Assembly (NCBI RefSeq): GCF_023278565.1
Contig: NC_064678.1
Location: 1,922,001 to 1,986,000 of the forward strand
Length of the DNA: 64,000 nucleotides
Source: Colletotrichum lupini
Lineage: Eukaryota > Ascomycota > Sordariomycetes > Glomerellales > Glomerellaceae
Direction: 5' to 3'
Shown piece by piece: positions 9,201-38,383 of this stretch; position 1 is the stretch's first letter; the number at the start of each line of letters is the position of its first letter. The position numbers and the translations under genes are program-made. The notes under the pieces were generated by a model, which was given only the letters and a program-made list of their open reading frames with translations, was not told the DNA's origin and made no database searches.

Positions 9201-10480
9201 ACTCTTGCTGCTAGTCATACCCCTGCTCGCTGGACCCGGCCGCCGTTGTCCATTCACGTTGTTCCAGTAGCCTGGGAAGCAACAAGCAAAGTGCAAGATA
9301 CTTTACCTGGATAAAGGTACTTCGCAAGAGGTAGATGGCATGCCCTGAAGTGGTGAGTGCCTACCCCGACGTATATACAATCCGATGTTGCCTTCTTTTG
9401 GCTTCGCCTTGGCTACCTACCTTATTGCTACGTAGCTGTAGCTTCCATCTCTCTTTCTTTTCTTATTTTTGCCTCATCCCAGTGCTCCTTGTTTCTTGTC
9501 AAGCCCTCTTGCCACGCTGCTTCACCTTAGATCTATCTACCCGTCGTCTCCCATCTCCATATTCCTGTCCGCCCACCCTCATTCTCACTCATCCATCTCC
9601 GCATCTCGACTCACAACTTGTCTCGACGACAACTCCCACTTAGCAAACCGGCGCATCACGGTCTGACTTGACTGTCTTGCTACGAAACGACGAATCACTT
9701 TTAACCTCTCTTGTCACCGTCATCCCTCTGTCACAAGAAGAGGGCTGGCTCATCTCTTCTCAGCGGCGCCAAGGTACTATCTATCTGCCTCTCTGTCTGC
9801 CTGTCTAGACTCTAGGCGCGGCCTTTTCCCCCACCATCTTTGAGACCCCTCTGAACCCCTCCACCACCACTACAACCATCCCGACCGAATCGGCTCTCCC
9901 ACGGCAGCCGCGCAACCTCGCACCACCCCACCACTTCACACCCTCACTATCGCAGCCCGGAAACCATCCCCCTTCTTCCGCGCCAGCCTTCCTTGTAAAC
10001 AATTTTTTTCTTCTCTCTCCTCACTTCTGGGTACGACCGTTCCGAGAGAAGCATAACTTCACATCTGCTGTGCCGCCCTTAATCATCCATCTTTCCCATA
10101 TAACACTTCCCTACAGTTCTTGGCCAGGCCTAATCTGAAGTCCCAGATCAAGGAACCCACCCCTCTGGGACCATCATCTGTATCTCTATCTTTCTGTTCG
10201 TCGACCGCGTCCGAAACCAGTATTCGTTCTCTGGCCTGCGAACTTCGTTCTGACCTGTCGTACAGCATTAGTCTCCGGGAAACACCACGTCGGATCAACA
10301 TTGAATTTTGACCGAGGTTCAATCAACAGGTTACTCTCGCCGCCGCCTCTTTGCCTCTGAGAGCCCCATAGCTGACTTCAAGCCAGACTTGTAGACATAA
10401 TTGTGGCAAAGACATGAGATAGTAAGGTTGCTGGATTATGGTGGACAGGCCCAGAGGTTTTCTCTCAAAACCGGGATATC
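6241..10480 (+). promoter_or_regulatory. Long pyrimidine-rich upstream region / probable leader
   Basis: No coding gene is recognisable. The plus strand is rich in CT runs, especially about 6950-7700 and 9400-10,100, as is common in promoters and long 5' leaders of filamentous ascomycete genes. Several short upstream ATG frames exist, for example at 9335 and 10,120. It leads directly into the large plus-strand gene at 10,481, so a long transcribed leader with upstream frames is the simplest reading. That is inference; no transcription start can be placed. Confidence 0.4.
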
Positions 10481-17223: not shown

Positions 17224-18364
17224 ATGAGCTCCCACAATATCCCCAAGCGCAATGCCACCGGGGCATTTGCGACCCCAATCGATCCGCCTCAGCTTCGCGC
17301 TCACCCTCGCGCCCATCAACAGCAGGACGGCAACGAGAATCTCATTGATGAGACTGCCAAGATGGCAAAGAGGCTCACCGAGGGCCCCTCCCAGACCCAA
17401 TGCGTCTTTGGCAATGAAGACATTGCCCCCAGCACCAGCATTGCTGGCGTCTCCGGTCGCCTTGGCGATCCCAAACTTGCTTCGATGCAAAAGATGGTCC
17501 TCGACTCGGTTCCTGAGGGAAGTCAGGTCAAAATCATCTATCTCATCACCAAGGTAAGCCATCTCATCTCATACCATCTCACCAAGCCTCACCACCTTCC
17601 ATTACTACCATATTCACGCGTGATGCCGCTGCTAATGATAAATAAAGGAGAATGAGAACAACGACTTCCGAGCTGGAACTGATAACAATGCCGCTGCTGC
17701 ACAAGCTGGACCTTTCGAGGTGGGCCGCTTTGTTCAACAGAACAATGCGGTTCAGGACCGCACTCGCGCCCAGGTCCACCAGCACAGACAGGGTGAGGAC
17801 AATGATGAAGAGGATGAAGATGTCTCCCTGCGGCCTAGAAAGCGTCGCCGAGCTTCCTGCCGAGTCTCTCCTCTTCATATATCGCCTAGAGGCCTCAAGA
17901 CCGAGCAAGAGGACGAGGAGGAAAGTGAGAAGCAGATCAAGGAAGAGGTCGATGATGAGGTCGACGATGAGTTCAAGGAAGAGGTCGATGATGAGGTCAA
18001 GGAAGAGGTCGACGATGAGTTCAAAGAAGAGGTTGACGATGAGGCTCTCTTCTTTGCAGAACCCGACGAAGTCATCAATCGCAACTTCTCTATCACACGG
18101 GCCATGCACAGAACGACTCCCTCCCTATATGGTCTTCCTTCTGGAAATAGCTTTCCGTCATCGACTCGAACCGCTCAGCAGATCAACACCTCTGATGATA
18201 ACGATGATGGTGACGAGGACGACGGCGAGGAACCAGTGCAAGTCAGATACACTGGAAGTTACTTTGATAACTTTTTCGCCGCATATGATGCCGCCTTCTC
18301 CGCTGAGGATCCTTATCCCTATCTTCGGAGCTTGGATGATCTCGACTTCCCTGGACTGCGTTGA
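17224..18364 (+). CDS. Acidic repeat-bearing hypothetical protein (two exons)
   Basis: Exon 1 is 17,224-17,553 and exon 2 is 17,648-18,364, giving 348 residues. The 94-bp intron has donor GTAAGC, a CTAAT branch-like word and an AAG acceptor, and joins in phase 0 so that YLITK continues into ENENNDF. I chose the ATG at 17,224 (MSSHNIPKRN) because the upstream in-frame part reads like leader. Exon 2 carries a basic cluster RPRKRRR that could be a nuclear localisation signal, then a strongly acidic block of KEEVDDE-type repeats, then a second acidic run (DDNDDGDEDDGEE). The C-terminus is aromatic and acidic (YFDNFFAAYD). I recognise no family. A nuclear acidic protein is a guess from composition only. 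Confidence 0.7.
17942..18046 (+). repeat. Tandem repeat coding for KEEVDDE-type units
   Basis: Degenerate in-frame copies of gaagaggtcgatgatgag, alternating with gagttcaag, encode EEVDDE(V/F)(K/D) units. It is a coding minisatellite inside exon 2 of the acidic protein and could vary in copy number between strains. Confidence 0.75.
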
Positions 18365-21839: not shown

Positions 21840-22668
21840 CTACGGGAACGGTTTAGTTGTAACAGTCTTGCCGTACGTCTTCATTTGCTTTATCAGGCGC
21901 CTGTTATCACCACAATGCCGAACATCCTGAGAGCCATCAATGAAAGGCGCGATTGTACCGTTGGGCAGAATCGGCTGCTGCTCTATCGTACCATCCGCTG
22001 CGCAAAGAATGCTCTACATGAAGCATGTTAGCTCAGAGAAGCTACATGGCGACTTAGTGTTAGGGTCATAGGCACCTTGCGCATGTAGTCGAGGCAATGC
22101 GGCCAGTGATCGTGGTCGTTCCAGTCTAGTCCCGGGTCGATTCCCCGATGGGCTCCTTGCAGGACGCTTCGAAATATTGAGAGGCAGTGAAGTTGATGAA
22201 ACCTGTAGAATAGTGAGAACATTATTAGCGTGTGTTGTAGTGCGTTCTTTATTGGATGGAAGGTTGCACTTACATGGCGATGGTGGCGCTCATACCCATG
22301 CTACCTTGGGCGGGATCCGTGAGGTTGAATATGATGGAGCCGGAATCTCCTTCAACGTCTTCCCAGAGACTGTCGTACTTGGGATCCAGCGACATGTGAG
22401 CCCAACTCCGACCAAAGACTGCCTCGATTTGAGAAGGACCGGATTGTGCATTGTGATGAAAAACACTGTTGGGCGAGGTGAGAGCAAACGCCACGGCTGC
22501 CAGGATGAGTGACGTGGTGCAGGCGCAATAGACCAGTAGAAGAGTGGTCAGAGAAGCTAGGCTGTAGGGTCTTGCTGATATGTCTGGATACACGGTTTCT
22601 TCTTCAGAGGTTTCGTTGTCTGCTTCTCTACTCTGGAGCTGAGAGTACTTGGACTTTGGGTCCATCAT
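21840..22668 (-). CDS. UstYa-family (DUF3328) peptide-modifying oxidase, canonical
   Basis: I reconstructed three exons: 22,668-22,274, 22,202-22,076 and 22,013-21,840. Introns are 71 bp (GTAAGT...CAG) and 62 bp (GTGCCT...TAG). The 231-residue product has a cytosolic N-terminus, one membrane helix at about 38-63, and the two diagnostic UstYa motifs: HQLHC at 134-138 and HWPHC at 164-168, the latter followed by LDYMRK. The third exon adds ILCAADGTIE and the typical DVRHCGDNRR segment, which confirms the splice choices. In ustiloxin, asperipin and cyclochlorotine pathways such proteins act in the secretory route and oxidise, cyclise or halogenate the peptide. It is the leftmost member of the cluster and faces the same way as the next three genes. 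The substrate here is inferred from the precursor at 28,302. Confidence 0.9.
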
Positions 22669-23033
22669 CTCTACGTTGGATGGTGGATGGATGATGACGG
22701 ATTTACAGCGAAGGCTGGGGAGTGAGTGTTAAGAGACAATACAGCGGGGATGTCCACTACAAATACAAGTCGCCCATTGAATTTGCCTTCCCTGCCCCGC
22801 TATGTAGAGAGAGGGGGAAGACAGACAGACACGTCAAGGCCATGCTACACAGATTACAAACGTTTGACAAAGATAGTAATCACAAAGGATACTAGCGATT
22901 ACAGTTAGAAAATAAATGGCGGGAAGTTCTCATAAAATTGCAGATTAGGTTTCCTAAGTCATTTAACGAGCAAGATTCCGTACTAAGTAACTAAGCAGGC
23001 ACCTCCCTGCATTCGTCTCTACAGCGAGGAGCT
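22669..23033. promoter_or_regulatory. Intergenic region upstream of the UstYa gene
   Basis: A 365-bp spacer between the start of the minus-strand UstYa gene and the stop of the next minus-strand gene. It must hold the UstYa promoter. I see no clear shared operator. Confidence 0.4.
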
Positions 23034-23741
23034 TTACACGACGTTTTCTCTATCCAGCACTCGCAGCCCATCCCCTTCGCACTCGTGGTATCCCACTTCC
23101 AGGTGAATATTCACCGTCCCCCAGTCGTGCGCAAACGGATCCGCCAGCCACGCCTGGCAATGCACGCTGTGGTGCGCGTCCCGATCCCGGTTGGTGATGC
23201 CGCCCGTGGCCCGGAAGAAGCGCCGTAAATAAAAGGCGCAGTGCCAGTAATGCTGGCCCCAGGTCGAATATAGGCCATCGCCCTCCCCAAGAAGAACCTG
23301 ATCCAGCAAGACCTCTTCAAGAGAAGAACTTTTCGCTGCTTCTGTTACCTCGCTGTTGTTGTTGCGATAGTACTTCCAGCCCTCCAGGCCATGGAGCTTG
23401 ATGAAGTCGTCGTGTAAGTCGACGTCGAAGCAGTTGTGCGGCACCCAGCTGTATGACCAGAGCTGGAAATGGCAGCCCCTGGCCCGGGCTTCGTCTGGGT
23501 TCACGCCGCACCTTGTAATAACAGGAGCAGCTGGTGCAATGGCATTCGTGACCGCTGATGTCCGATTGATGATCAGAGGCACCGCCCACAGGATAGATGA
23601 GGCGATCACGCCAATGAGGAAAGGACCGAGGAACCTTTTCACGGACTCGAGCCTTGCGTGTTTTCGTTTGTTGCCAGTGTATGGTGATTCGGCGAGGAAA
23701 GGCTCGTCCTCGTCGTATTCAGCTTGAGGAACCGTCGTCAT
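23034..23741 (-). CDS. Divergent UstYa-like membrane protein (double HxxHC), paralogue 1
   Basis: A single exon of 235 residues. After a 36-residue polar tail comes a membrane helix at about 37-59, so it is probably a type II membrane protein with a lumenal domain. The lumenal part opens with CG...EARARGCHF and WVPHNC, a pattern shared by all four paralogues here. It carries HYWHC at 164-168 and HSVHC at 191-195. These match the UstYa signature in kind and nearly in spacing (27 residues against 29-30), but the rest differs from canonical UstYa. I infer an oxidase or partner working on the cluster peptide. The family is common in filamentous ascomycetes; this member has no known function. Alternative: an unrelated secretory membrane protein family. 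Confidence 0.85.
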   Translation of the reverse strand: MTTVPQAEYDEDEPFLAESPYTGNKRKHARLESVKRFLGPFLIGVIASSILWAVPLIINRTSAVTNAIAPAAPVITRCGVNPDEARARGCHFQLWSYSWVPHNCFDVDLHDDFIKLHGLEGWKYYRNNNSEVTEAAKSSSLEEVLLDQVLLGEGDGLYSTWGQHYWHCAFYLRRFFRATGGITNRDRDAHHSVHCQAWLADPFAHDWGTVNIHLEVGYHECEGDGLRVLDRENVV

Positions 23742-24352
23742 ATCGATTTCACGCCTTGTAAGGTGTCAGATCAATCAGGAAGCATCCCAGGTAATCAAAT
23801 ACAGAACTCACGAGAAACTGAGTGAATTGGTTCTCTTCAGTTGTGAGGTTCCTGCTCAGTGAGATCTGGTTTATGATGATGCCAATACAAATGCCGCTAC
23901 GAAACGACTCTTACTCTCTGTTCTGTCCCCTCCTCCTCTTCTTCTCGTCCTGCTCATCCCCCTCATCCTCGCACAAGACTTGATCCAAGCCGCGTTTTCG
24001 ATACTTCCTCACTATTTCTGTCTATAACGATATCACGATAACAGAAGTCCGTCAGTGCGACAGCGTTGCTTTGCCTCTCGAGCTAATGCATGCAGTCAAT
24101 GCTTGATTGCACCAACATGGCGAGTCGGAGTTCCGTCTCCAAGGTTGTTGTCTCTGCAATCACCACAGATACATCAGCCCAATCAGATGGTAGCAGATAG
24201 CCCACTCTGCTGAAGAGAAACACTTATCGAGCATCTTTGTTGCCGAGTTTACCGATGCGAGGTGATGAATTTTGCAAAAGTTCTGCATCGTGCAATTGTA
24301 TCAGACTTTCCCTCGAAACTACCAACCGGTTCTAGCCTCCGAGAGACAAGCA
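23742..24352. promoter_or_regulatory. Intergenic spacer / promoter of paralogue 1
   Basis: A 611-bp spacer between two minus-strand genes. It contains a pyrimidine-rich run on the plus strand at about 23,920-23,975. No gene was recognised. Confidence 0.4.
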
Positions 24353-25021
24353 TCAGCATCCTCCAAACACAACGTTTCCGCTCGTATCCATCTCGTCAAT
24401 CCCCTCAGCCTGCAGCGCCCTCCACAGCAGAAGCATGGTGCAGTGCTTGGAGTGATCAAAGTCCGCCGTTAGCTTATCCACCCTGCCACCATCGGCAAAT
24501 GCGCGCGCCTTTCGAACCAGCATCCACGCGCAGTGCGTCAAGTGTTCCCGCTCCGTGCCCCACCATTTCTCGCTCCTCCCGAGAGATGCGAGGTCTTCCA
24601 TGCTGAGCTCCTCTTCTCCGGCCTGGTCCCGCCAGTAACGCCAACGAGATTGGTTATGCGCTGCGCCCGCTGCCGCTTCGAATTCGGCTAGGCCGTAGCG
24701 GGGGCAGACGGCGGGCAGCCAGGCTTTTGCGAGAGCGTCAAAGGTGCATCCTGCCTGCTGAGCTTCGGCAACGCTGCTTCCGCAGCCAAGTTTCTGCCTT
24801 GGTGTTGTTGATTGTAGAAGCCGTAGGTGTAGGAATAGTAGAATCAGAAGCAAAGTTCCGAGTATTGCGACTGTCGCGAGTAGCGAGAACAATACGAGTC
24901 GGTTTGGCTGTCGGGTGGTAAGGCCTCTGGTCTTCGCAGGCGGATTGTCTGTAGTGTCGTCATTGAGCGACTGATACCTACAAGTCGGCGACGGAAGTTT
25001 CAATGCTTGTTGAGATACCAT
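24353..25021 (-). CDS. Divergent UstYa-like membrane protein, paralogue 2
   Basis: A single exon of 222 residues when started at the ATG at 25,021 (MVSQQALKLP). The frame runs open 63 codons further upstream, but that part reads like leader and would bury the membrane helix. The helix lies at about 41-69. The lumenal domain has the shared CG...EAQQAGCTF and AWLPAVC pattern, then HLTHC at 160-164 and HSKHC at 190-194, exactly 30 residues apart as in canonical UstYa. The C-terminus ends in Gly-Gly-Cys. It stands in the same orientation as its neighbours on both sides. The role, modification of the secreted repeat peptide, is inferred from context and motifs. Confidence 0.85.
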   Translation of the reverse strand: MVSQQALKLPSPTCRYQSLNDDTTDNPPAKTRGLTTRQPNRLVLFSLLATVAILGTLLLILLFLHLRLLQSTTPRQKLGCGSSVAEAQQAGCTFDALAKAWLPAVCPRYGLAEFEAAAGAAHNQSRWRYWRDQAGEEELSMEDLASLGRSEKWWGTEREHLTHCAWMLVRKARAFADGGRVDKLTADFDHSKHCTMLLLWRALQAEGIDEMDTSGNVVFGGC

Positions 25022-25317
25022 GTTGAGGATTTGATGATGGCTATAATGTGGTATTATGATATGCGGGTAGTATGTGGACTTGCCCTGTTGATATAGGAGA
25101 GGGCAAGGTAGGCGGTGCCAGGTATAAGCCAGGACCGTGTGGCATGCACGTCTTAACGGTGGAAACTTCAACTCTTGGTTTGCTGCGATTGATTCGAAAC
25201 TGCCTACCAAGTATTGAAGAGAACATCTTGGACTTTAAAAGTCCAGCAATATGTCACATACGTGATAACCAACCCCAATGTTCACGAAGTGCTGAAAATC
25301 AAAGATAGTCCTGTTTC

Positions 25318-26090
25318 TCACTCCATATCAGTGTTCAACGCCACCCCAGCCACAGTACCATACCCCGGATCCAAAAAGATCTTGCCGCAATGCTTGATAT
25401 GCTTCTCATTGTCTGACCGTGGCTCAACAATCTTCCCGTTGAACCGCGCCCTGTGCTCCTTTCTCCAGTAGAAAATACAGTGAAGAACATGCCAGTGGCC
25501 AGACATGTGGAAGCGCAGCTCTTCCTGATTATCCGCCATCTTCGCAATCTCTCCGACACTGATCTCTTGAGTATGCGCGGTGTCAGCCCAGTACGTCCAC
25601 TCGCCGTTAGGGCCGGGCCCAGAGCGCTCAAATTCGGCCGTCAGCTCGTCGTCCCGACAGTGCTCGGGGAGCCAGGCGGCGGCCAGAGAGTCGTATTTGC
25701 AGCCCAAAGTGACTGCTTCGGCGGTGGAATTTCCGCAATCGCAAGACGCGACTGCGGGTGCCGCGTGCAAGATGTCCGGAGTCGAGGTTCCCTCCGGGTG
25801 GGTGTGAGGGTGGAGGTTTGTTGGAGACTGGAGGAGGCTAACAAAGCCCAGGATTGCGAATGCAATCAAGATCAAGTCCTTCAAGGGTGAAATTGACGGC
25901 CTGGATAGTAGGCGATATCGTGAAGCTTTATGGCTTCGAAACCCCGTAGTCGAAGAGACTGAGTCGTCGTCACAGTTTTCGGCCATGAGAGACTGCTCTT
26001 CGTCGTGTGTACTATGCCTGGATGATTGTATCAGCCCCTGATTCTCTCCAAAGAAGCATCCTAGACTCACCATTTCTCTTTGGGCGCCAT
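25318..26090 (-). CDS. Divergent UstYa-like membrane protein, paralogue 3 (one intron)
   Basis: Exon 1 is only 20 bases (26,090-26,071), then a 53-bp intron (GTGAGT...CAG), then exon 2 (26,017-25,318), giving 239 residues. The splice produces MAPKEKWHSTHDEEQ. Without it the frame would start inside the intron with MVSLGCFF, which I reject. A membrane helix lies at about 53-70. The shared pattern CGNSTAEAVTLGC and AWLPEHC follows, then HVLHC at 183-187 and HIKHC at 213-217, 30 residues apart. It is divergently transcribed from paralogue 4, whose product also begins MAPK, suggesting the pair arose by inverted duplication. The activity is inferred. Confidence 0.88.
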
Positions 26091-26626
26091 TTTCAGCGTG
26101 GTCAGTGTCAATGTCAGAGCCAATGCTGGAAGACTTGTGGTTGAGGGAGATATTGATGTGAGAGATCGCGACCTGGGAGGATGTGCCTATGCACTTGAGG
26201 AGGGGGACTGGTTTACGGACTGGTTTACGCCTGTCTCAAACATGCTGATAGGCTTCCGGGCCTAGCATAGTTGCTTACCAGGTTAGTCCAAATACCCCTC
26301 CTTGATCTGCACGGTGACTTGGCAAACATACCAGGGTCGGTCGTGGGCCCGGAGGAAGGATCATCGATGCTATGCGGACTGTCACCTATAGCTGAGTGGA
26401 CCGAGATACATTAAGCTGATAACACAGTAGTAGGGACTTGGAAGGACTTCCGAGTGCCGTGTGATTCGAATGATATGTCCTGGAATAGAAAGATGGCCCG
26501 AACCACGAAGTTCCCAAGCCGAAGCCGCGGTTCTAAGCCATCAGTAATTATTCTTCTGGGGGACCCTCCGGTTCGCTCTTCGAATAGAATCTTCGGTTCC
26601 AGCCATCTTCCTTCTTTACACACTCA
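26091..26626. promoter_or_regulatory. Shared bidirectional promoter of paralogues 3 and 4
   Basis: A 536-bp spacer between two divergent start codons, so both promoters must lie here and the two genes are probably co-regulated. A small direct repeat (gactggttta twice) sits near 26,205-26,229. I see no certain zinc-cluster binding site. Confidence 0.55.
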
Positions 26627-27367
26627 ATGGCACCAAAACACAGTTACAGCCAAGTTTCTCAGACATCTGATGTCAAGTCCTCCATCGAGGAGGAGCTTGA
26701 CGAGAGCGACAATGGCCCCGAATCTGGACGCAAATCTAGCTTCCTCTCCCCCATATTCCTCATGATCTTTCTGAATGGATTGAGCCTTGTCTTTGGCATC
26801 GGAATTGGTGCTTCGGTCGTTGCAATGATTGCGCATAGGCCAGCAGCGCAACAACCCAACAATGCCAGACCAGTCGCCGGAACCATTGCCATGATTGACG
26901 GCATCGAGGCTCCAGGCACGCAGTGCGGCGATACCTGGCAAGAGGCCAAGGCTCTCGGCTGCCACTTTGATGTCATGGCATCACGCTGGTATGCTCCCGA
27001 ATGCTTCGACCAGACGGCCCTCGAAGGCATGCTCGACGAGCAGCCGTACGTCAACTTCACCTGGTACGAGGACAAGGAGCATACAAGAGTCTACCCCTCC
27101 GAGCTCGTCTTGCGGGGCGAGTTTGATAAGGTGTATCCCAGCGGAGACTATCACATCTATCACTGTCTCTACTTGTGGCGGAGACTTCATCACGCCGTGA
27201 TCAAGAATAAGCCTGTCGATGAGGATTTGCTCGAGTACGGCCACACGCTGCACTGCACTCGCATGATTATGCAGTGGATGGATCCAAGCATACCCAGGAC
27301 AACAATTTCCTCTGCCACAAGCGGGACGCCGTTTTGCAGGAGTAGCCGGTTGGGTCTGATGGTTTAG
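26627..27367 (+). CDS. Divergent UstYa-like membrane protein, paralogue 4
   Basis: A single exon of 246 residues starting MAPKHSYSQV. A hydrophobic helix at about 41-69 follows an acidic N-terminal tail. The lumenal domain has QCGDTWQEAKALGCHF and YAPEC, then HIYHC at 176-180 and HTLHC at 206-210, again 30 residues apart. It includes a possible N-glycosylation site (NFT). The last 35 residues, Ser/Thr-rich and then basic, look unlike the other paralogues, so a late frameshift or a missed terminal intron is possible. It is the only paralogue on the plus strand and points toward the precursor gene. The role is inferred from the cluster. Confidence 0.85.
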   Translation: MAPKHSYSQVSQTSDVKSSIEEELDESDNGPESGRKSSFLSPIFLMIFLNGLSLVFGIGIGASVVAMIAHRPAAQQPNNARPVAGTIAMIDGIEAPGTQCGDTWQEAKALGCHFDVMASRWYAPECFDQTALEGMLDEQPYVNFTWYEDKEHTRVYPSELVLRGEFDKVYPSGDYHIYHCLYLWRRLHHAVIKNKPVDEDLLEYGHTLHCTRMIMQWMDPSIPRTTISSATSGTPFCRSSRLGLMV

Positions 27368-28301
27368 TGAGAGGGTTGAATAGTTAGTGCAGGGGAAAGG
27401 ATTGTTGATTCGTTGGTGGACTTGGCACTGCTTGGGACCCTCACCTAAGAAGCTTAATCCAAAATATTACCGTTTTCAGATGTGCCCCTCTTGAATTGCG
27501 CCTTCTATTGGTTGCCGACTCTCTCCATTTCTTCAGCAATCACACCGCACAGGCCAGGTGAACTCAACTGAAATCGACGATTGCTTCGAGATTCAGGCTG
27601 GCATCTTCAAGTTTGACTGAAACCAGATAGCCAGAATTAGCGCTCTTTCATTCAGATGGGTCCTTCTCGGTGACTCTTGAGTCGGGTATCCGGCAACTTC
27701 TTGAGAACGCCAGTGGCAGAACAGCACATCAGATGGTGGCCAACATGACGTGACTGACCAAAGTCCCAAACGGTGAGCGGCTTTGGGTGTGAGCTGCACG
27801 TATCATTGTCCCACTCGAGGGAAATATGACCAGATGGGCACTAGTGTTGACTCTTCAAATTCATCTAAAGTTCAGAGTTGATAGGCGAATATACTTAATT
27901 CCACATGCGGAACGGTGGGTGCCAATATGCATGATCCTGAACGACATATTCCAGGAAGTAGCTAACCCTGACTGGTGATTGCTACACGAGCGACAATATG
28001 TCAGTTCGGGGTCGCCTCATACTCCGCTATATGTCTAATTGTCAAGCTATTCTCGGATGGATACAGGGTAGCATTCACTCGCAGTCCCAAAACAAGGTCC
28101 ATATGGACAATATGTGGCCCGGCCGTCCGAACACTTCTTATGGTATTATATACGCATGTCCCAGTTCTTCAGTCTAATAGATCATGCGATACTGTCAAGA
28201 CATCTTTCTTAGCCACAACCTTTAATCTACCAAATCAAAAGATCATCACTACTACTACAACAACTACTTCACATACTCTACCGCCAGACAATTCTTACAC
28301 C
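27368..28301 (+). promoter_or_regulatory. Promoter and leader of the precursor gene
   Basis: A 934-bp spacer. A TATA-like word (tattatatac) lies at about 28,144-28,153, some 150 bases before the start. The last 60 bases form a CA/CT-rich leader (ctactactacaacaacta), typical of strongly expressed secreted-protein genes in fungi. The precursor frame happens to stay open back to 27,975, but this part does not look like a protein. Confidence 0.5.
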
Positions 28302-28649
28302 ATGAAGCTAACGTTCGCCCTCACCGCCCTCCTTGCCACAACCGCCATGGCCGGAGTGGCAAAGATACGCCACGAGAACGAGACTCTTGAAGACAGCTAC
28401 AAACGTCGCTCCGTCAAAGCTGGAATCGTCCCTGTCAAAGAAGAAGACATCATTTCCCTCGGCGATAGAGCAGTGAAGGCCGGTATCGTGCCAGTGAAGG
28501 AAGAAGACATCATTTCTCTGGGAGACCGCTCAGTCAAGGCGGGCATCGTGCCAGTCAAGGAAGAGGACATCATTTCTCTGGGAGACCGCGCTGTCAAGGC
28601 TGGCATTGTTCCGGTGAAGGAGGAGGACATCATCTCACTCGGGGATTAG
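28302..28649 (+). CDS. Secreted repeat precursor peptide (putative fungal RiPP / Kex2-processed repeat protein)
   Basis: 115 residues. Residues 1-17 are a clear signal peptide (Lys, a long hydrophobic core, then ATTAMA). A short leader with an N-glycosylation site (NET) leads to a Kex2-type KRR at 34-36. Then come four tandem units (37-56, 57-76, 77-96, 97-115), each containing VKAGIVP, VKEED and IISLGD. Position 1 alternates Ser, Ala, Ser, Ala; all other positions are identical, and the last unit lacks the final Arg. Units end in GDR rather than KR, so cutting would be at single Arg. The organisation matches dikaritin-type precursors and lies among six HxxHC proteins. The unit lacks Tyr, Phe, Trp, Cys, His and Met. 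The mature product is unknown. Alternatives: an unmodified repeat peptide or a small cell-wall protein. Confidence 0.85.
   Translation: MKLTFALTALLATTAMAGVAKIRHENETLEDSYKRRSVKAGIVPVKEEDIISLGDRAVKAGIVPVKEEDIISLGDRSVKAGIVPVKEEDIISLGDRAVKAGIVPVKEEDIISLGD
28410..28646 (+). repeat. Four 60-bp in-frame core repeats
   Basis: Units are 28,410-28,469, 28,470-28,529, 28,530-28,589 and 28,590-28,646. Nearly all base differences are synonymous third positions. Units 2 and 3 share the longest identical stretch, which suggests partial homogenisation or a more recent duplication. Confidence 0.95.
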
Positions 28650-28777
28650 GCAGTCTTAGTCGATGACAGAGACTACTCGAGATTATGGAGGGCAATGGAG
28701 ATCTGTTGATGTTCTATCGATCTTCAATCAAGTAGCATGCGTTACAATGACATGGCTTCTGCCCAATACATGACAGC

Positions 28778-29803
28778 TCAAGGAAACAAGAACCTTCCAC
28801 CTCCAGTCTTTCCTACAGCGCCGTGATCTCTCAGGACCCTCATCGCTTCCTCGTGACCTCCAACCGCAGCGCTCTGCAGCGGAGTTTGCCCTCTTCGTCC
28901 CTTGAAGCTACAGGCATTCACATCAGCACCGGCCGCCAACAAGCGCTCTATCACATCCACTCGACCTGTCTCAGCTGCCGCATGCAACGCCATTGCATCC
29001 CCGTAGATTCCTCCCACGGCGTGGACATCAGCGCCTTCCCGAAGAAGAAGGTCGGCGACCTCGAGACGACCTCGCAGACATGCGCCCTGAAGAGCCGTGT
29101 AGCCCTTGTACTTTGCCGATGCCGCGTTGATATCAGCCCCGTGTTGGAGAAGAAGCTTCACTATCGCCAAGTAGCCGCCGCCCGCTGCGGCTTGCAGTGC
29201 CGTATACCCCGCCGTGGGTGAAGGCGGGGCGTTCACGTTGGCACCCATTTGCAGCAGTCGACTGACGAGATGCTCATGTCCTCGTTCTGCTGCTGCCTGG
29301 AGTGCCGTTCTTCCGTTATACCGCGTCACGACAACCGACGACGATGATGGTGTTGTTGGTGACCTGTACCCCGAAGGATGCGGTACAGGCTTCAATGACA
29401 CCTCGTCGACTCTGGCCCCCGCGCTGAGCAGGATATCAACGACCTTTTCGTTGCCGTGCCCGCAGGCTATCTGCAAGGCGTTCCTTTGGAAGTTGTTGCC
29501 CCCGCAAAAGTGGATATCGGCGCCGGCGTCGACAAGCATCTGCACGGCCTGTTCGTGGCCGCGCATGCATGCAGCCTGGACGGCCGTCTGTCCGTAGTAC
29601 CCGTGCGGGGGCTCGTTGACGGCCGCCGGGTCGGCGGCAAGGATGGCGCGGATTTGGTCCAGGTCTCCGCTTCTGGCGGCGAGCTGTAGCGGCGTCCAGC
29701 AGTACTCCTCTCCATCGTCAGTCTGCAGAGTCGGGTCCCACGCCGCGTCTAGAGGCGTCAGGGATTTGTGCATGACTGTTGGGCTCTGAGTAAGGCGAGC
29801 CAA
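28778..29803 (-). CDS. Ankyrin-repeat protein
   Basis: A single exon of 341 residues. About eight ankyrin repeats run from residue 37 to the end, each recognisable by patterns such as TALQAAAERGHEHLVSRLL followed by GANVN or GADI. The start is MARLTQSPTV; a second ATG ten codons later is also possible. There is no signal peptide or membrane segment, so it is probably cytosolic or nuclear and works by protein binding. It lies between the precursor and the second UstYa gene, on the opposite strand, with its stop only 128 bases from the precursor stop. Whether it belongs functionally to the cluster is unclear; it could be a scaffold, a regulator or an unrelated insertion. Confidence 0.88.
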   Translation of the reverse strand: MARLTQSPTVMHKSLTPLDAAWDPTLQTDDGEEYCWTPLQLAARSGDLDQIRAILAADPAAVNEPPHGYYGQTAVQAACMRGHEQAVQMLVDAGADIHFCGGNNFQRNALQIACGHGNEKVVDILLSAGARVDEVSLKPVPHPSGYRSPTTPSSSSVVVTRYNGRTALQAAAERGHEHLVSRLLQMGANVNAPPSPTAGYTALQAAAGGGYLAIVKLLLQHGADINAASAKYKGYTALQGACLRGRLEVADLLLREGADVHAVGGIYGDAMALHAAAETGRVDVIERLLAAGADVNACSFKGRRGQTPLQSAAVGGHEEAMRVLRDHGAVGKTGGGRFLFP

Positions 29804-30316
29804 GGCTCGGGAGGGCAGGTGGTATTCGTGGGATCGAGAGGATCAGGAGGGGTCCATCCAGCTTCGTGAGCTCTTAGGAAACGGAACTTCAGCTGTGATA
29901 CTGATAAGATGGCAACAGTTCAGGCAAAAGTAAGCCCCGTCAAATTTATGCTTGAAATTGCATGTTGCTTAGTGATGTGTTGTTGGCGACTGGAACGGCT
30001 GCATGTTGGTTGGCCAAGACGGGCGTTCGATCCTCTTACATGCGCTAGCTTACCGGATCCTGTTGCCTATCGATCGGGATTCGGCACACGTCTATCCTCA
30101 AGATGCGGGGATCAAAAGCGACATGGGTCCGGAGGGAGGTGAACGTTTAGATGAATATCACTATCTCTAGATGCCATCTCTGTATCGAGGACAATGAGCG
30201 ACAGTCTTACAGAGACTACTTCGCAACTCTCACCGTGATCATCTTGCACAACGCAAGCTGCTGTTCTCCGTTCATCCCTTGACCCAATTTCCTCGCCTCA
30301 TTCCAATTACGCAGCT
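29804..30316. promoter_or_regulatory. Bidirectional promoter between ankyrin and UstYa genes
   Basis: A 513-bp spacer separates divergent start codons, so both promoters lie here. No further gene was seen. Confidence 0.5.
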
Positions 30317-31338
30317 ATGCCTGGAAAGTGGGAGAAGCCTTTTCGCGATGAATCAGACTTGTCGTCTGAGGATCTCAGTCTAACCGATGAGACTCTCAGA
30401 GTACGACGGGCAGGACCTAGACGCCAAGTCTGGAGGTTATTGGGAGAAGCCGCTCTCGCAGTTGGAATCACCATACTAGGCGGAGTTGTCATTCAGGATA
30501 GAGTTCTTCCAAGGACTGGATTATTGCCCTACGGGCCAGTGCGTATGTAACCCCCCGGCTTGCCTCTTTTCATGAAAATCGCTAACAATCACTGCCATTA
30601 CCATTAGTTCCCCAGAAAGTTGTCACTTTCGGCAACACGGCTGGCTTTGGGCCGGATCTCGTATATGCGGACCGGCAGATGCTTCTGAACGCTACAAGAA
30701 TGGAAGAAGTACATGAGAACTGGCAGCAATTATATCCAAGTAAGTCATCTAGTTTACCCATGGGATATCGCTGACCTCCGCGTCACAGTCAGTCGAGGCT
30801 ACTTTGTGGCAGACGAAAATAGTGCAGAATACAAAGTCCAGTTTCCACCAGCAGACATCAGCGGCGTGTTATCCCCAGATGACAAGCGCAGCGGCTGGGT
30901 TCTCTCTGTATTTCATCAGATTCACTGCCTGGTAAGCATCTGAGAGCCACAATTCAGTGCTATGTTCCTTGCTGCCTAGGACAAAAAAGAGCTGACACCA
31001 ACCCATAGTCAATCATAACGACAAGGCTCGGCATCTCCCGAAAAGAGTTTGCAGACTGGGACCCATTCAAGTTAGGCCACACAGCGCATTGCATCGAGTA
31101 CCTGCGACAGAGTATCCTATGCTCAGGAGATACCAGTCTTGAGGGCGAGTCAGGATCGTGGTCGGAGAGTATCGGCTGGGGCCAGAACCATGTGTGTAGA
31201 GACTACGACGCGCTCTTGCGACTGGCGAACGAGAAGGCGGCCTGGGACCTCAGTCATGAGCGCGAGCCGGACCACTCCAAGCTCTTTGAGTCTAACATGG
31301 ATGACTGTGATTCAGAGAGTGGAGAGTACTGTCACTGA
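30317..31338 (+). CDS. UstYa-family (DUF3328) peptide-modifying oxidase, canonical, four exons
   Basis: Reconstructed exons are 30,317-30,542, 30,608-30,739, 30,789-30,931 and 31,009-31,338, giving 276 residues. All introns have GT-AG ends (GTATGT, GTAAGT, GTAAGC donors) and phases that agree. The N-terminal tail is polar, a membrane helix spans about 43-60, and the lumenal domain carries HQIHC at 162-166 and HTAHC at 191-195. HTAHC is followed by IEYLRQSILC and then GWGQNHVCRDYDAL, the usual UstYa ending. Known UstYa proteins oxidise or cyclise peptide cores in the secretory pathway. It is the right border of the cluster: a copia element begins 200 bases past its stop. Confidence 0.93.
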
Positions 31339-31537
31339 AAGGTCCTGTCCCGATGCCATCGACTCTGAAGGAATGAGGAGATTCTGCCTTTCCCCTATAT
31401 CCATGAGCATGAAGATCAACTATTTTTCGCATTTAATGATATCATCATCGCGAATTTCCAACTGTTGGCGAAGATTATGCGTATCACTCAGCCGTGACTC
31501 GGTTCTAATAAATGTCTCCATTAATAAAGACCAGATC

Positions 31538-31739
31538 TGTCGGATTAGAAGTCCAATTCGACCGCAGCATCCAGCCGACTGCGCAGGGGCCAATTGGGGG
31601 CCCTATATACGATTATCGTAGCCAGCCCAACCTACGGTTAGAACCTCCTTTTTACACCTACGCAGATATTTATATAGTTTAATTAATCTCTTCGTTAACT
31701 ACGGTTCGAACTAACTACTTTATAATAAGGATACTAATA
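31538..31739 (+). repeat. 5' LTR of copia element
   Basis: It begins TGTCGG and ends ACTAATA. Its first roughly 150 bases keep CA and TG dinucleotides that are lost in the 3' copy, so this end escaped most RIP. Confidence 0.88.
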
Positions 31740-34700
31740 TTAATTAGTAATTAAATTCTATTATTATAGATCGGTAAGGTATCTTATTACGTAAAAGAGA
31801 CGACCTCTTAATATTATATAGGATAGGAGATTCGTACTAATTAACTTTATAGAAGTAGACGAAAAAGGAGGCGATTCTTAAATACTATACGGAATTAAGT
31901 AATTATAGCCCTTTATTACTTACGAGAGGTCGATATTTATTACGTTAAACTATATTAATTAACGGAACCGCTTAAGCGACTAGCCTTTTACCGTCGCCCT
32001 AAGTAGCTTTTTTATTAAATAACTTTTCCGCGGCCGGCCCGCGATTAGAAATTAACTAAGTAATAGAAGGGATCGCTAATAAGCGATAATTACCTAACCG
32101 TAATTAAGCTACGAAAAAGACTGCTTAAAAGATATAAAATAGGGTACTAAGAGGCCGTAAAAGATAAGATCTCTAAGGTATCTAACCCTACTACGTATAA
32201 GTAATAAGTAGGCATTTTTAGTAATTTTTTTAAAATATACGATTTTATAAAAAAAAGGGCTTAATTTCGTTAACTATACTTAATAGCTTATACGGTTCCT
32301 AATAGCCTATATAGGTCCTCTACGAGCCGCCCGGCGTCTATTTTTAACTATTCCTATAGAATACCGCCCTAGAGGAGGTAGGTTAAAAAAGGAAGCTATT
32401 TAGAGATTATAGAGAGCACGAGGCTTAGGAGGCTAGAAGTGTATAGGATAGCGGAAATCGGTAACTAGTAAAGATCCTAAGACTAATTACTATATCTTCT
32501 TATAGTAATATAAACGTTTGCCGCTATTATTATAAAAAGGAACTACTAAAACCTTCCTTTTTATACTAAACGAAAAAGAGGATCTTAGTAAGTATAATAG
32601 CTAGCGATTTAAAAAGGTAATAGTAATTACTAAAAATAATAAAAACGAGAGTAGTAATAAGATAGCGAGAGGAAGCGGGAATCTCTTAGACCCCGATAAA
32701 TTCGTCGGGTAGTAAAAATACGGATTTACTACGACTAGCGCGCAAATTAAATATATCCTTATTAAGATTAAATACGCTAGCGACCGCTAATATAGGTATA
32801 AGTTAGAGCAAGCCCTTTAGTAAGTTAGGGTAAAAAAAAAGAGGACGAAACCCGATCTTAAATAGAATCCTAATCCCTTATAAGTAAGTAAATATTAACC
32901 CGGATTATTAGGGGACGTAGATATATAGAATCGTAAATTAGCCTAATAGTAAGTAAATTAACGCGGTATTAATCTATTTAACTAAGGTCTATAAAAAAAA
33001 GGGGCTATAGGGGCAACCCCTATTTTACGAGATTATAAACGACCTTAGTTATTAACTAAATAAATAGTTCGCGAGCATAAGCCTAGGGATTGCGAAAGTA
33101 GTTAATAAATTCCTTTATGGGCGAGGGGTATTATTAGCGTAATTATAATCGCGAGAGCTATACGAAATACTAATAATAATAATTATAGAGGAGGACTTCG
33201 TACTATAGAACTAAGTAAAGGTCGATAGAGCGTATAATCGCTTTAACGAATTTAAAAAAAGGGTAAACGACCCAGATTTCCTCCTTATAATTACTAATAG
33301 AAATCTATTATCGTAAAAGGATATACTAGGGCAAAATATAGCACTAGAAGTATAATAATCGATAATTCTGCCTATTTCGATCTATAACTTATTACCGCTA
33401 CTAATATAAAATTCGGTACTAATCGGCTAATAAGAAAGGAGGTAGATAACCTAAAGTTACTAATAGTACGTAGCGACGCAGGGATCGCATATAAATACCG
33501 AAAATTTAGTAGCGAATACGAGGTAATTTATAGACTTTAAAAAGATCTTCCTAAAAGAGAAATTATATTCTGGGGGGAAGTATGAGGTCTTATAAAAAAC
33601 CTTAATAATGTTTTATAATTATTACGAAAAAGTCGGAATTAGGGAATATTAGTACTATTTAGTAATTAATATCGTACTTATAGGCAAAGCCTCTAATTAT
33701 TATTACGAAGCGGTACGTAATCTCGATCGAAACGACTTTCTTAGTATAATTAACGTAATCCGAAGCCGCTTAGAGACCTATAATAGGAACTTAGAGCTCC
33801 TATTTAAGCTACGAGCGATTTCTTTTATATTTATAGCTAGGATAATAGAGGGCAAATTGCGAGTAGAGATCCTCGAAGAGCTTATCGATCGAATTAATAA
33901 GCTAGCGAAAACCTAGCTAAATAAGGGGATAAACGAGCGAAAAGTTAAATATTTTTATACCGTAGTTTAGCGTATATTAGAGATAAAAATTACCTTATAC
34001 TAAGTACCTAAAGACTACGAGACGCTCTACTCGAGGCTAAGATCTAGCTTTAATATTAAAGCGAGAATGCTACGCTAAACCTATTTCTAAATATACGACG
34101 GCCCTTAATAATAATATTAAGTCGATCGAACGTATAATAAGAAAAGAAAAGAGGCTAAATATAGTAATTACTAATAAGGAGGCCTAGATTCGTCAAATAA
34201 GTAGAGATTTAACTTACGGGTAGGGTAATAGAAAAGGCAATACTATATTTATAAAAAGGATAGATATTAGTTAAGTAACTACTCTAAAGAAGAGCGTATT
34301 AAATCGTATAAATAGTATAAAAAGTCGAGGGTAGTAGACGGTAAAACTAGCCCTTATTAGTTTAACTAATTCCTCGTTATATATAAGGGTAGATCCGGGG
34401 GCACGGAACCTAGCGACGATAGTTAAAATAGCGGCCTAAAGTATATACCCCCTATAAAAGATTTAGAAAATAAAAAAGATCTTACCCCTTATACTAACGA
34501 ATTAGATTATAATAAAATCGACGATATTAACTACTCTTTCTTTACCCCGTTAGCTTCTAGAAGATATACGAGGCTAAACGAATAGAGGATAGTAAAAGCT
34601 CTTAATAAGTAGGCTTTTATTTATAGATAATAAAAGAAGGTCCCTTAGATAACGGATACGGAGGCGGCTAAAAGGGTGAATTTAATAGGGCTAAAGCTTA

Positions 34701-37700
34701 TTATCTTAACGATTAAAGAGAAGACGCTATTTTTTTTAATATTTAAAGAAAAGGAACATAGTACCGAGCATATCTAGGGGTAGCTAGAGGGGTCCTTTTT
34801 ATACTACTTAGATCCTTCGAATACTAAGCTTATATAAGCATTCTACGCGAGCAAAAGGTACGGCCTAGACGATTTTTACGAGGTTATTTTAAATACTAAG
34901 GTATCATAATAGTTAACTAGAAGAAAAGGGTAATTCTAAGCGCTATAAAAGATCGCACTAGTAACGCTTAATACGTCGATAGCGGGTATTATAAAAATTA
35001 GTTTCGGTTTAGGTAAGGAAATCGTCGCCCTAGGTATAGTAAAAGTAGAGACATACTTCGGAACGATAACTTTCTATATTTTACTTATTAATACCCTATT
35101 TCTCTTATATTTAAAAGACATAGATCGACTAAGTATTATATTCGATAATACGAGGAATAGAATCTCTAGTAGTAAGTACTTTAAAATAGTCGAACGACGA
35201 TAGGGATATGCGTTTATAAAGCTCACTAATAATATAAAATCGATTAATTACCTAATAGAAAGTGAGCTTAGAAGATTATACCGGAGATTTGGGTACCCGT
35301 CGGTTACGAGGCTATATAACCTCCTAAAGTAATTAGGTAATAATAATATTAAAATAGGGGCGCTAGAGTAGTTAACGAAAGTATATTATTAATATTAAAT
35401 AAATGCGCAGAGCCTACGTAAATTTAAGTTTAAATTGCGTAATAAGCTTAACTTTAACTAGGAAATAGTCGTCGATATCTTCTATTTAAATAGTCGGCTA
35501 GTACTATATATAATCGACGTAGCTATATCTTTTTAAATAGGGCAATTCCTTTAGGATTTATAAGTAAAGATAGTGTGGGTAGCCCTACGAAAAAGCTAGA
35601 TTAATATATACTAGGGACCGCTAGACGGCATTAGAACCGACGCTAGTACTAGCTTTAAGTTAATAGAATTTAGAGATAATATAACGGCCTATAGTATATA
35701 GCTAAAAGTCGTACTTATTAAAGCGTATTATAGTATTAGAAAAGTAGAAAGGGTATACTAGTAGTTAAAAAGGGCGTTTAGAATTATTAAAAAAGAAAAT
35801 CCGGATTTTATTAATAACGAATGCCTTTAGATAGTACTTAAATACTATAACAATACTATAGGGCCTAACGGACTTATACTAACGCTATTAGTATTTAGAG
35901 CATATCTAAGAACGACCTTAGCCTTACTACCGTCGCTAGGCATAAGCTAACGAGCCCGAGTAATTAAAAAAGTAATACGAGCACTGCGCGAGGTAAGTAT
36001 AAAAAGGTAAGTTAACGAAGTAATTACTACGCGCAATAGGCCCGATATAGGGGATAATTTAGATATATTACTAAATTCGGATATATAAGTATAGTACGAA
36101 ATTACTTAATAATAAACTAGGCTATATAAGTTAATTTTTGTTAACGAGCGCTCTTATATAGTCGCGAGAGATCGCGACTAGCTACTCGAAGTATTAATTA
36201 TAATAGTTAGACCGTACTATATAGATCCTAACGAGGTAATTTCTAATTTATAAAAAAGAAAAGAGCTAGGGGAAACTATATAACCCGCGGTAGAGGTATA
36301 GGAAATTATCCTTAATAAAATCGTCGTAGTAGTACTAATAAATAACGAGGAAGAGGAAATTACTAAAAGGGCACTAATATTACTAGCGAGACGTCGCAAA
36401 AGACTACGACGGTAAGCCCTAACGTAGCAATTTATTATTAATAACGAGGTAATTAATACTTTTTATATAGTAAAAAAGAAAGCCGATTTCGAGCTAGTAG
36501 TTAAACTACGTAAAGAAGGCGTAATTATAACTATTAGAAAGCTATATAAGGGATTAGATCTTATCGAAATAGACACTTTTCGTAATCGAGGGGTCTATCG
36601 ATTTATCTTATATAACTTAGAAAAATATATAAACCTCCGCATATTTAAATTACGAATAGTTCGTAAGATTAAAGGGAAAGGAACACCCTAGCTATACGAG
36701 AAGTCTAAATACGTAATTTAGGGGTACGGCGACGTTAAAAAGGCGACGCTACTTATATAATCGCTTATTATATAGCGCTATAACTAACGATTAATAATAG
36801 CACTAATAGCATCGCTATAAAAGAAGGGATACGAGATTTAGAGCCGTAATATTACCTAGGCCTATACCTAATTAGCCACAGGGCTTATAAGGAAAATCCT
36901 AGCCTATTTACCGAAGGAAATGGCTAATAAGTACCTAGAAGGCACGATTATTAAAGTACTTAAGCTACTATATAGGCTCGCAAAATCGGGCACCTATTAG
37001 TAAGCTACTTACTACGATTTTTATATTAATTAACTATTAATAGTTACCTCTACGTACGACCCGTGCTTACTAATCGTAGAGTACGAAAGCGACTAATTTA
37101 GGATCGTCGGAATATAGACCGACGATATATTAGGCCTATTTAATATTAACTTTATAAAAAAGGAGGATAAGGAGCTTTATAAAGCGGGCTTTGTAATAAA
37201 GCTAAAAGAGGTCCTTATAATAAATACCCTCCTAGTGTTTAACGGTAAGATTTTTATAATCGAAGGGGAAAACGTCGTTTTTTAATAAAAGGGGTAGGGC
37301 GAGAAGATTAACCTCGTTAATCTAAATATAACTAACGTTAAAAAGTAATATAAGGCTAAGCTCGCGCGAGGGGTATATATTACGAGTATTTATTAATCCG
37401 AAGTAATTTTTAATTACGCTAGAGTAGTATAGGTTATAAATCTAACTAAATAAGACGTCGAGGTACTTAATAAGTAGCTTAAGTAGTAGTAGACGAATCT
37501 CGATTAAGGTCTCGTTTACTACCCGATCGACCTTACGATTAGTAAGCTCTACGTCTTTATTAATAAGTTATTTATAAATAATAACGACCTTACTTCGTAA
37601 TTAGGGTATATTATTATCCTAGTTAACGAGAGTATAGGTAAGAGCGAATTTACTATATACAGTAATATAATCTATTACTTATTAATTAAAAATAAGCGGG

Positions 37701-38181
37701 TAATAAAAAGTATACTAGCGTCGGAGGTTTATAGTATAGTTAACGGCGTTAATCTCTCTTACGCAATTTTAACGACGCTAAGGAAGATTACTAATCGAAT
37801 TAGCTTTTTACTTATTCTAATAATTATTTATACCGATTCCTACTCGCTATATAAATACCTTATTAAATTAAGAACGACGAAGGAAAAGAGGTTTATAATT
37901 AATATTATAGCCCTTAAGTAATCGTATAAAAGGTACGAGATACTCGAGATCTATTAAATTAATAATAAAAATAACCTCATAAACGTTTTTATAAAAGTAG
38001 TACTAAATAAGGGATTAGAGTAATTCGTAAGTAGCGGAAAAGTTACTATACGAATAGAGGGATAGGTTATATAAAAAAAGTAAAGAAAAGGGGGAAAAGG
38101 AGACGACTTAGTAAACGGGCCCGAGATCGAATTATACCTCTAACCGTAGCGGTTAAATTAATAAAAAAAAGAAAAAGTTAG

Positions 38182-38383
38182 TATTAGATTAGAAGTCTAA
38201 TTCGACCGCGGTATTTAGCTAACTACGCAGGGGCTAATTAGGGGCCCTATATACGATTATTATAGCTAGCCTAACCTATAGTTAGAACCTCCTTTTTATA
38301 CCTACGTAGATATTTATATAGTTCAATTAATCTCTTCGTTAACTACGGTTCGAACTAACTACCCTGTAATAGGGATACTAATA
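38182..38383 (+). repeat. 3' LTR of copia element
   Basis: It begins TATTAG where the 5' copy has TGTCGG, and ends ACTAATA. Most differences from the 5' copy are C-to-T or G-to-A. Confidence 0.88.

What the first reader, a model, noticed from the sequence alone, without database searches (positions are those of the whole stretch)
21840..31338. Putative new fungal RiPP cluster: one repeat precursor and six double-HxxHC membrane proteins
A secreted tandem-repeat precursor lies among two canonical UstYa proteins and four divergent relatives within 9.5 kb. UstYa proteins with such precursors define dikaritin-type pathways (ustiloxin, asperipin). Unusually, I see no P450, tyrosinase, methyltransferase, peptidase or transcription factor in the cluster, so chemistry might rest on the six HxxHC proteins. 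The precursor does not resemble the ustiloxin, phomopsin or asperipin type.
Basis: partly seen in the sequence, partly recalled or inferred. Interest (0 to 1): 0.92.

Follow-up and report, generated by a model that had tools for sequence, protein, structure and literature searches.

The report
Fungal peptide cluster, six copper-type enzymes
A fungal chromosome carries a small secreted protein made of four near-identical 19-residue repeats beside six membrane proteins with the metal-binding signature of known peptide-modifying enzymes, probably a pathway for a modified peptide whose building unit lacks the aromatic residue that known relatives cross-link.

Summary
Within 9.5 kb lie a secreted precursor with four copies of [SA]VKAGIVPVKEEDIISLGD and six one-helix proteins, each with an intact double HxxHC motif. 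Two are clear PF11807 (UstYa) members. Four belong to a divergent family of at least 15 genes in this genome; 4 of 9 of its loci outside the window lie within 10 kb of a PF11807 gene (0 of 200,000 random placements reach 4). Two of these loci also hold classical KR-spaced repeat precursors, so the divergent family goes with repeat-peptide pathways. The window's repeats are saturated at synonymous sites but almost unchanged in protein (pS 0.81, pN 0.016): the peptide itself is under selection. Two features depart from known dikaritins: no aromatic residue in the unit, and no dibasic Kex2 site between copies (single Arg; a stop codon in its place after copy 4). Best reading: a UstYa-type multicore RiPP pathway acting on aliphatic side chains, with Arg-directed release. 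Substrate, chemistry and product are inferred. Synteny in other species and co-expression could not be tested. A new variant of a known kind.

The parts
28302..28649 (+). precursor, 115 aa: signal peptide, pro-region, KRR, four repeats
   Evidence: open frame without intron; MKLTFALTALLATTAMA start read by eye as a signal peptide; only match in own genome
28302..28352 (+). putative signal peptide (17 aa, A-M-A at -3 to -1)
   Evidence: sequence read by eye; hydrophobic 19-mer at residues 4-22, mean 1.50; no signal-peptide program run
28401..28409 (+). KRR, the only dibasic site of the precursor, just before copy 1
   Evidence: dibasic pairs at residues 34 and 35 only
28410..28469 (+). repeat copy 1, SVKAGIVPVKEEDIISLGD-R
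28470..28529 (+). repeat copy 2, AVKAGIVPVKEEDIISLGD-R
28530..28589 (+). repeat copy 3, SVKAGIVPVKEEDIISLGD-R
28590..28649 (+). repeat copy 4, AVKAGIVPVKEEDIISLGD-stop (stop codon where the others have R)
21840..22668 (-). UstYa-1, 231 aa, 3 exons, FHQLHC...HWPHC
   Evidence: PF11807 59.7 bits, E 4.8e-16; gene model
23034..23741 (-). divergent double-HxxHC protein d2, 235 aa
   Evidence: HYWHC/HSVHC; family members in own genome; no PF11807 match
24353..25021 (-). divergent double-HxxHC protein d3, 222 aa
   Evidence: HLTHC/HSKHC; PF11807 13.1 bits, below cut-off; nearest relative C9:1037k
25318..26073 (-). divergent double-HxxHC protein d4, 251 aa
   Evidence: HVLHC/HIKHC; no PF11807 match; 50% identical over 141 residues to the gene in KEP cluster B, C4:1626k
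26627..27367 (+). divergent double-HxxHC protein d5, 246 aa
   Evidence: HIYHC/HTLHC; PF11807 12.2 bits, below cut-off; low-confidence model puts each HxxHC near the start of a helix
30317..31338 (+). UstYa-6, 276 aa, 4 exons, FHQIHC...HTAHC
   Evidence: PF11807 83.9 bits, E 2e-23; gene model
28778..29773 (-). ankyrin-repeat protein, 331 aa, between precursor and UstYa-6; membership of the pathway doubtful
   Evidence: PF12796 192.3 bits

Best explanation
A ribosomal peptide pathway of the UstYa (DUF3328) kind. The precursor enters the secretory pathway (signal peptide, inferred). Four near-identical 19-residue units are modified in the ER/Golgi lumen by membrane-anchored double-HxxHC proteins, which by analogy with the characterised DUF3328 enzyme CctR are dimeric two-copper oxygenases. 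Since the unit [SA]VKAGIVPVKEEDIISLGD has no Tyr, Phe, Trp, His or Cys, the chemistry must fall on aliphatic, Lys, Ser or acidic side chains (hydroxylation, dehydrogenation, halogenation or aliphatic cross-links) and not on a Tyr/Phe cross-link. The tandem is freed from the pro-region at KRR by Kex2; the units are then separated after the single Arg at each boundary. Shown: genes, motifs, sequence kinship of the divergent proteins with UstYa (modest), their company with repeat precursors elsewhere in this genome, selection on the repeat peptide. Inferred: that the repeats are the substrate, copper use, both cleavage steps, the chemistry and any bioactivity.
For: Six intact double-HxxHC proteins with one TM-like stretch each; two over the PF11807 cut-off. 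Divergent family tied to UstYa: PF11807 is matched by 3 of 13 members scanned (best E 2.4e-6), every other Pfam family by one at most; one genomic member is over the cut-off at 27.2 bits (C2:4k); the profile comparison aligns both HxxHC motifs (E 9.7e-5, probability 58). 4 of 9 loci outside the window within 10 kb of a PF11807 place, 0 of 200,000 random placements reach 4. Same-genome clusters B (C4:1626-1630k: divergent gene, KEP with 10 IPFYP units, UstYa) and A (C5:803-814k: three divergent genes, KEP with 23 F[VI]TE units, UstYa). Repeat units: 69 synonymous against 4 nonsynonymous differences summed over 6 pairs, pS 0.812, pN 0.016; within the 19 residues only S/A after the Arg varies, and a stop replaces the last Arg. 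CctR chemistry: PMC12435403. Apparent cleavage after single Arg for KEPs expressed in P. pastoris: PMC9769878 passage.
Against: No relative of the precursor could be looked for outside this genome. No dibasic site between copies. All four divergent proteins of the window are below Pfam's cut-off; 10 of 13 branch members have no PF11807 match at E up to 1, and the profile match is modest (probability 58; 28 for the window's four alone). The structure model is poor (pLDDT 49, pTM 0.40). No shared promoter word above the null. An ankyrin gene interrupts the group. Five of nine outside loci of the divergent family have no PF11807 place near (counts of PF11807 being lower bounds), so the family also seems to occur without one.
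Confidence: 0.6

Rival explanations
1. The repeat gene makes an unmodified secreted peptide or repeat effector (linear signal or structural repeat protein); the HxxHC genes beside it work on another substrate.
For: No dibasic spacing and no aromatic residue; many repeat-derived fungal peptides are reported as linear (PMC9769878 passages); in Umemura's survey only 22% of KEPs have a DUF3328 neighbour (abstract).
Against: The only precursor with this repeat in the genome lies inside the densest HxxHC group seen, and three further loci of the genome have a repeat precursor beside HxxHC genes.
Confidence: 0.22
2. The enzymes modify a non-ribosomal or other small molecule, as CctR does for cyclochlorotine.
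For: CctR, a characterised DUF3328 enzyme, acts in a non-ribosomal peptide pathway (PMC12435403).
Against: No NRPS or PKS domain among the 19 window proteins or frames scanned with Pfam, a partial scan; a repeat precursor is at hand.
Confidence: 0.07
3. The core is in the pro-region (GVAKIRHENETLEDSYKRR, which holds the only Tyr) and the repeats are a recognition tail.
For: The only aromatic residue outside the signal peptide, and the only His, lie there; the only dibasic site ends it (sequence).
Against: Four copies held almost identical at saturated synonymous distance argue that the repeat is the product.
Confidence: 0.06

Closest known systems
[quoted passage not shown]
   Same: secreted multicore repeat precursor beside PF11807/DUF3328 genes; the phomopsin pathway has five DUF3328 proteins (PMC7329392 section 7)
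   Different: no Tyr/Phe in the unit; copies not separated by KR/RR/KK; no tyrosinase, methyltransferase or peptidase gene recognised in partial scans; four of the six enzymes from a divergent branch
Kex2-processed repeat proteins with DUF3328 neighbours (Umemura 2020, 1758 of 7878 KEPs)
   Same: architecture and company; 65.6% of repeated sequences in such KEPs contain Tyr, so Tyr-free ones are not rare
   Different: fails the survey's own definition (at least 3 repeats between KR, KK, RK or RR), so that survey's rule would miss it
CctR (DUF3328 two-copper hydroxylase of cyclochlorotine, PMC12435403)
   Same: single TM helix, HxxHC(x)nHxxHC towards the C-terminus; CctR's target is a C(sp3)-H bond
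   Different: [quoted passage not shown] d2-d5 carry conserved CG/GC/C cysteines before the first HxxHC; no copper test done here
Clusters A (C5:803-814k) and B (C4:1626-1630k) of the same genome
   Same: divergent-family gene(s), PF11807 gene(s) and a repeat precursor within about 11 and 4.5 kb
   Different: their precursors are KR-spaced with aromatic-containing units (F[VI]TE; IPFYP); one divergent gene of A has degenerate motifs

Membership tests
UstYa/DUF3328 (PF11807): UstYa-1 and UstYa-6 | profile score over Pfam cut-off; double HxxHC | tested here: met
   59.7 and 83.9 bits against 25; motifs
UstYa/DUF3328 (PF11807): d2-d5 | profile score over Pfam cut-off | tested here: not met
   13.1, 12.2 bits and two without match; one other genomic member of the branch is over it (27.2 bits)
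UstYa/DUF3328 (PF11807): d2-d5 | N-terminal TM helix and HxxHC(x)nHxxHC | tested here: met
   hydropathy and motif, 4 of 4
UstYa/DUF3328 (PF11807): d2-d5 | common descent by profile comparison or fold | tested here: inconclusive
   hhalign E 9.7e-5 but probability 58; fold model too poor
UstYa/DUF3328: all six | two copper ions bound per monomer, O2-dependent catalysis | not testable with these tools
   known for CctR only from the paper
dikaritin | class-defining DUF3328 enzyme in the cluster | tested here: met
   definition from PMC12048977 passages
dikaritin | signal peptide and tandem repeats in the precursor | tested here: met
   repeats; signal peptide by eye only
dikaritin | cores separated by dibasic KEX2 sites | tested here: not met
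   only dibasic stretch is KRR before copy 1; definition PMC9769878 passages
dikaritin | Tyr (or Phe) side chain available for the cross-link in the core | tested here: not met
   no F, W, Y, H or C in the unit
dikaritin | cyclised product | not testable with these tools
   no metabolite data
KEP (Umemura definition) | at least 3 repeats of 8 aa or more between KR, KK, RK or RR | tested here: not met

The most novel reading that the evidence does not exclude
A class of multicore fungal RiPP in which six two-copper HxxHC enzymes, four from a branch of the superfamily that Pfam mostly does not recognise, are the whole tailoring set and work only on aliphatic and charged side chains of a 19-residue, aromatic-free unit that is released after single arginines; surveys that ask for dibasic spacing and PF11807 would undercount such pathways.
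Probability: 0.4. Interest if true: 0.75.

Novelty: new variant of a known kind. Interest (0 to 1): 0.55.

Why it matters
A DUF3328 enzyme was shown only in 2025 to be a copper oxygenase (PMC12435403), and what sets the family's different reactions apart is open. A compact cluster with six double-HxxHC proteins and an aromatic-free substrate would make it testable whether such enzymes alone can build a ribosomal product on unactivated C-H bonds. The divergent branch, found with repeat precursors at three loci of one genome, would widen the search profile for fungal RiPPs, as would dropping the demand for dibasic spacing.

Tried and rejected
AlphaFold2 model of d5 on the 4-row alignment: pLDDT 49.3, pTM 0.40, so no fold search was made. 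Promoter words shared by the seven genes: none above random pieces. Pfam matches of the precursor (10 families, none over its cut-off) are taken as composition effects. Three strings of the repeat and one of cluster B in open-access papers: 0 papers (supplements not searched). Text searches were seen as listings. A search with the genome's size (5 of 2,469 papers listed) did not name the organism.

Considered and rejected: recent tandem duplication of the repeat unit (synonymous sites saturated); local tandem duplication of d2-d5 (the four are not one clade: 0% of 200 bootstrap trees; d4 joins the cluster B gene and d3 joins C9:1037k with starred support; 13 of 15 family members used, long branches, 7 of 10 inner branches open); chance ORF. 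In one search the units of clusters B (9 used) and C (13 used) were picked by exact motif, so their zero nonsynonymous changes are by construction; only their synonymous divergence (255 of 432 and 387 of 780 codon comparisons, against 66 of 114 in the window, with 4 nonsynonymous) is informative. Dropped before counts: the 32 PF11807 rows became 27 places (C2:4k is a divergent gene; exons merged at four loci); a divergent-family row at E 0.85 (C3:1086k) was left out; two partial members (C2:5790k, best E 0.002; C9:4632k) were left out of the alignment. Scan for repeat precursors at loci with PF11807 matches and no divergent gene: of six seen with 1.5-kb flanks, five showed none (C3:6854k, C7:3808k, C5:1459k, C1:2114k, C4:40k) and one did (C2:1107k); four seen over 30 kb (C9:2429k, C4:1706k, C8:91k, C7:4439k) showed only low-complexity frames. 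Of nine divergent-family loci outside the window, seven showed none within the about 1.5-kb flanks held.
Full report
What is there. The window is C5:1922001-1986000 of an unnamed 63.4-Mb genome in 12 contigs, by its genes that of a filamentous fungus. Between 21840 and 31338 lie, in order: UstYa-1 (-), d2 (-), d3 (-), d4 (-), d5 (+), the repeat precursor (+), an ankyrin gene (-) and UstYa-6 (+). The right border of the group is also the border of an AT-rich block with a strong RIP-like dinucleotide signature from about 31.4 kb (TpA/ApT 1.60 against 0.63 in the cluster; (CpA+TpG)/(ApC+GpT) 0.17 against 1.31). The five cluster genes measured (d2-d5, precursor) have GC3 of 0.60-0.67, against 0.58 for the neighbouring F-box gene and 0.64 for the ankyrin gene.

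The enzymes. All six have a TM-like stretch between residues 40 and 81 and two HxxHC motifs 27-30 residues apart. UstYa-1 and UstYa-6 are over the PF11807 cut-off. d2, d3 and d4 are 24, 18 and 23% identical to d5 and the four share CG, EA, GC, W, C and the two HxxHC. In the own genome this divergent family has at least 15 members, four of them in the window (the weakest, C2:5790k, at E 0.002). In a 13-member alignment one Cys, Gly-Cys, Trp and three of the HxxHC residues are invariant and the other three at least 90%; one member, C5:805k, has degenerate motifs (HLYSC). PF11807 matches 3 of the 13 (best E 2.4e-6), and the hhalign comparison with five UstYa proteins aligns both HxxHC motifs (E 9.7e-5, probability 58; with the window's four alone E 6.3e-4, probability 28). 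I take the branch as distant UstYa kin, not as proven members. The window's four do not look like a tandem duplication: they fall apart in the tree (weakly resolved, long branches).

The precursor. After a putative signal peptide and a pro-region ending in KRR come four units, [SA]VKAGIVPVKEEDIISLGD, joined by single Arg; after the fourth a stop codon stands where the Arg would be. Over the six pairs of copies there are 69 synonymous and 4 nonsynonymous differences (pS 0.812, pN 0.016); the four are the S/A exchange at position 1. So the copies are old and the peptide, over 18 of 19 positions without change, is what selection keeps. The synonymous divergence is like that in the repeat precursors of clusters B and C (with the caveat under Tried and rejected). 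The unit has no F, W, Y, H or C. The precursor has no other match in the genome.

Context in the same genome. A scan for repeat-bearing frames in the first 32 kb of the window and the 62 loci then held, many overlapping, completed by two short pieces, found three KR-spaced precursors beside HxxHC genes: A, C5:806769-807410 (+), 23 F[VI]TE units, with divergent-family genes at 803k, 805k and 813k and PF11807 places at 811k and 814k; B, C4:1627938-1628390 (-), 10 units (G)ADAEAEAIPFYPKR, with a divergent gene at 1626k (the nearest kin of d4, 50%) and a PF11807 gene at 1629-1630k; C, C2:1105845-1106447 (-), 15 QDDAKAY units, with a PF11807 gene at 1107.6k and no divergent gene found near. Of five groups that hold both a divergent and a PF11807 gene within 10 kb, three (window, A, B) have a repeat precursor; in the other two (C8:4412k, C2:5790k) none was seen, but only about 1.5 kb on each side of the divergent gene was held. 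Of nine divergent-family loci outside the window four lie within 10 kb of a PF11807 place; random placement of nine loci never reached four in 200,000 trials.

How it most likely works. See Best explanation. The catalytic analogy rests on CctR (PMC12435403; I read parts 1 and 2 of 3 and passages): homodimer, two coppers per monomer, activity lost on Ala mutation of the conserved His and Cys, O2 and electrons used, C(sp3)-H target. Release after single Arg is an inference from the unit boundaries; [quoted passage not shown] pastoris (PMC9769878, passages). Asp before the Arg makes it a poor Kex2 site by general knowledge (recalled), so another protease, such as a yapsin (recalled), is as likely.

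Comparison. Dikaritin precursors are described as repeats separated by KR, RR or KK (PMC9769878 passages), and the characterised products named in a review are cross-linked at Tyr, or Phe in victorin (PMC9233826 passages). Both features were tested and not met. In Umemura's survey (PMC7329392: outline, sections 7 and 13, passages) 1758 of 7878 KEPs have DUF3328 neighbours and 65.6% of repeated sequences there contain Tyr, so the lack of Tyr alone is not exceptional; by its rule the window's precursor would not be counted, as it fails the dibasic condition. Other papers were seen as passages only: PMC9632046, PMC12048977, PMC6339444.

Limits. Only the own genome could be compared. No expression, no metabolite. 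The absence of other tailoring genes rests on strict regexes and Pfam for 19 window proteins or frames (9, 10). The structure model is too poor to use beyond noting that both HxxHC of d5 lie at the start of predicted helices.

Noticed in passing
C4:1627938-1628390 (-), in L006/L026/L047: KEP with 10 units of (G)ADAEAEA-IPFYP-KR: the GA-DA-EA-EA run looks like a STE13 trimming signature, as in mating-factor precursors, yet the gene sits beside UstYa and divergent HxxHC genes; a HET-like frame (name by eye) lies at C4:1624502-1625380.
   Followed up: partly
C5:804792-805709 (+), L041: Divergent-family member whose two HxxHC motifs are degenerate (HLYSC and DYHQC) beside the F[VI]TE repeat precursor; perhaps a non-catalytic partner.
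   Followed up: no
C2:1105845-1106447 (-), L064/L004: KEP with 15 QDDAKAY units beside a PF11807 gene.
   Followed up: partly
window 31400-38200 and 41000-64000: AT-rich blocks (GC 0.22-0.33) with a RIP-like dinucleotide signature and frames that look like relics of mobile elements (by eye), split by a GC-richer island at 38.2-41 kb that holds exons of a sugar transporter.
   Followed up: partly
window 10418-14974 (+): Long open frame of 1519 aa without any Pfam match at E 0.01; its C-terminal part looks methyltransferase-like by eye (VLKPGGYLELS).
   Followed up: partly
window 17945-18044 (+): Short acidic repeat (EEVDDE.. units) inside a 240-aa frame.
   Followed up: no
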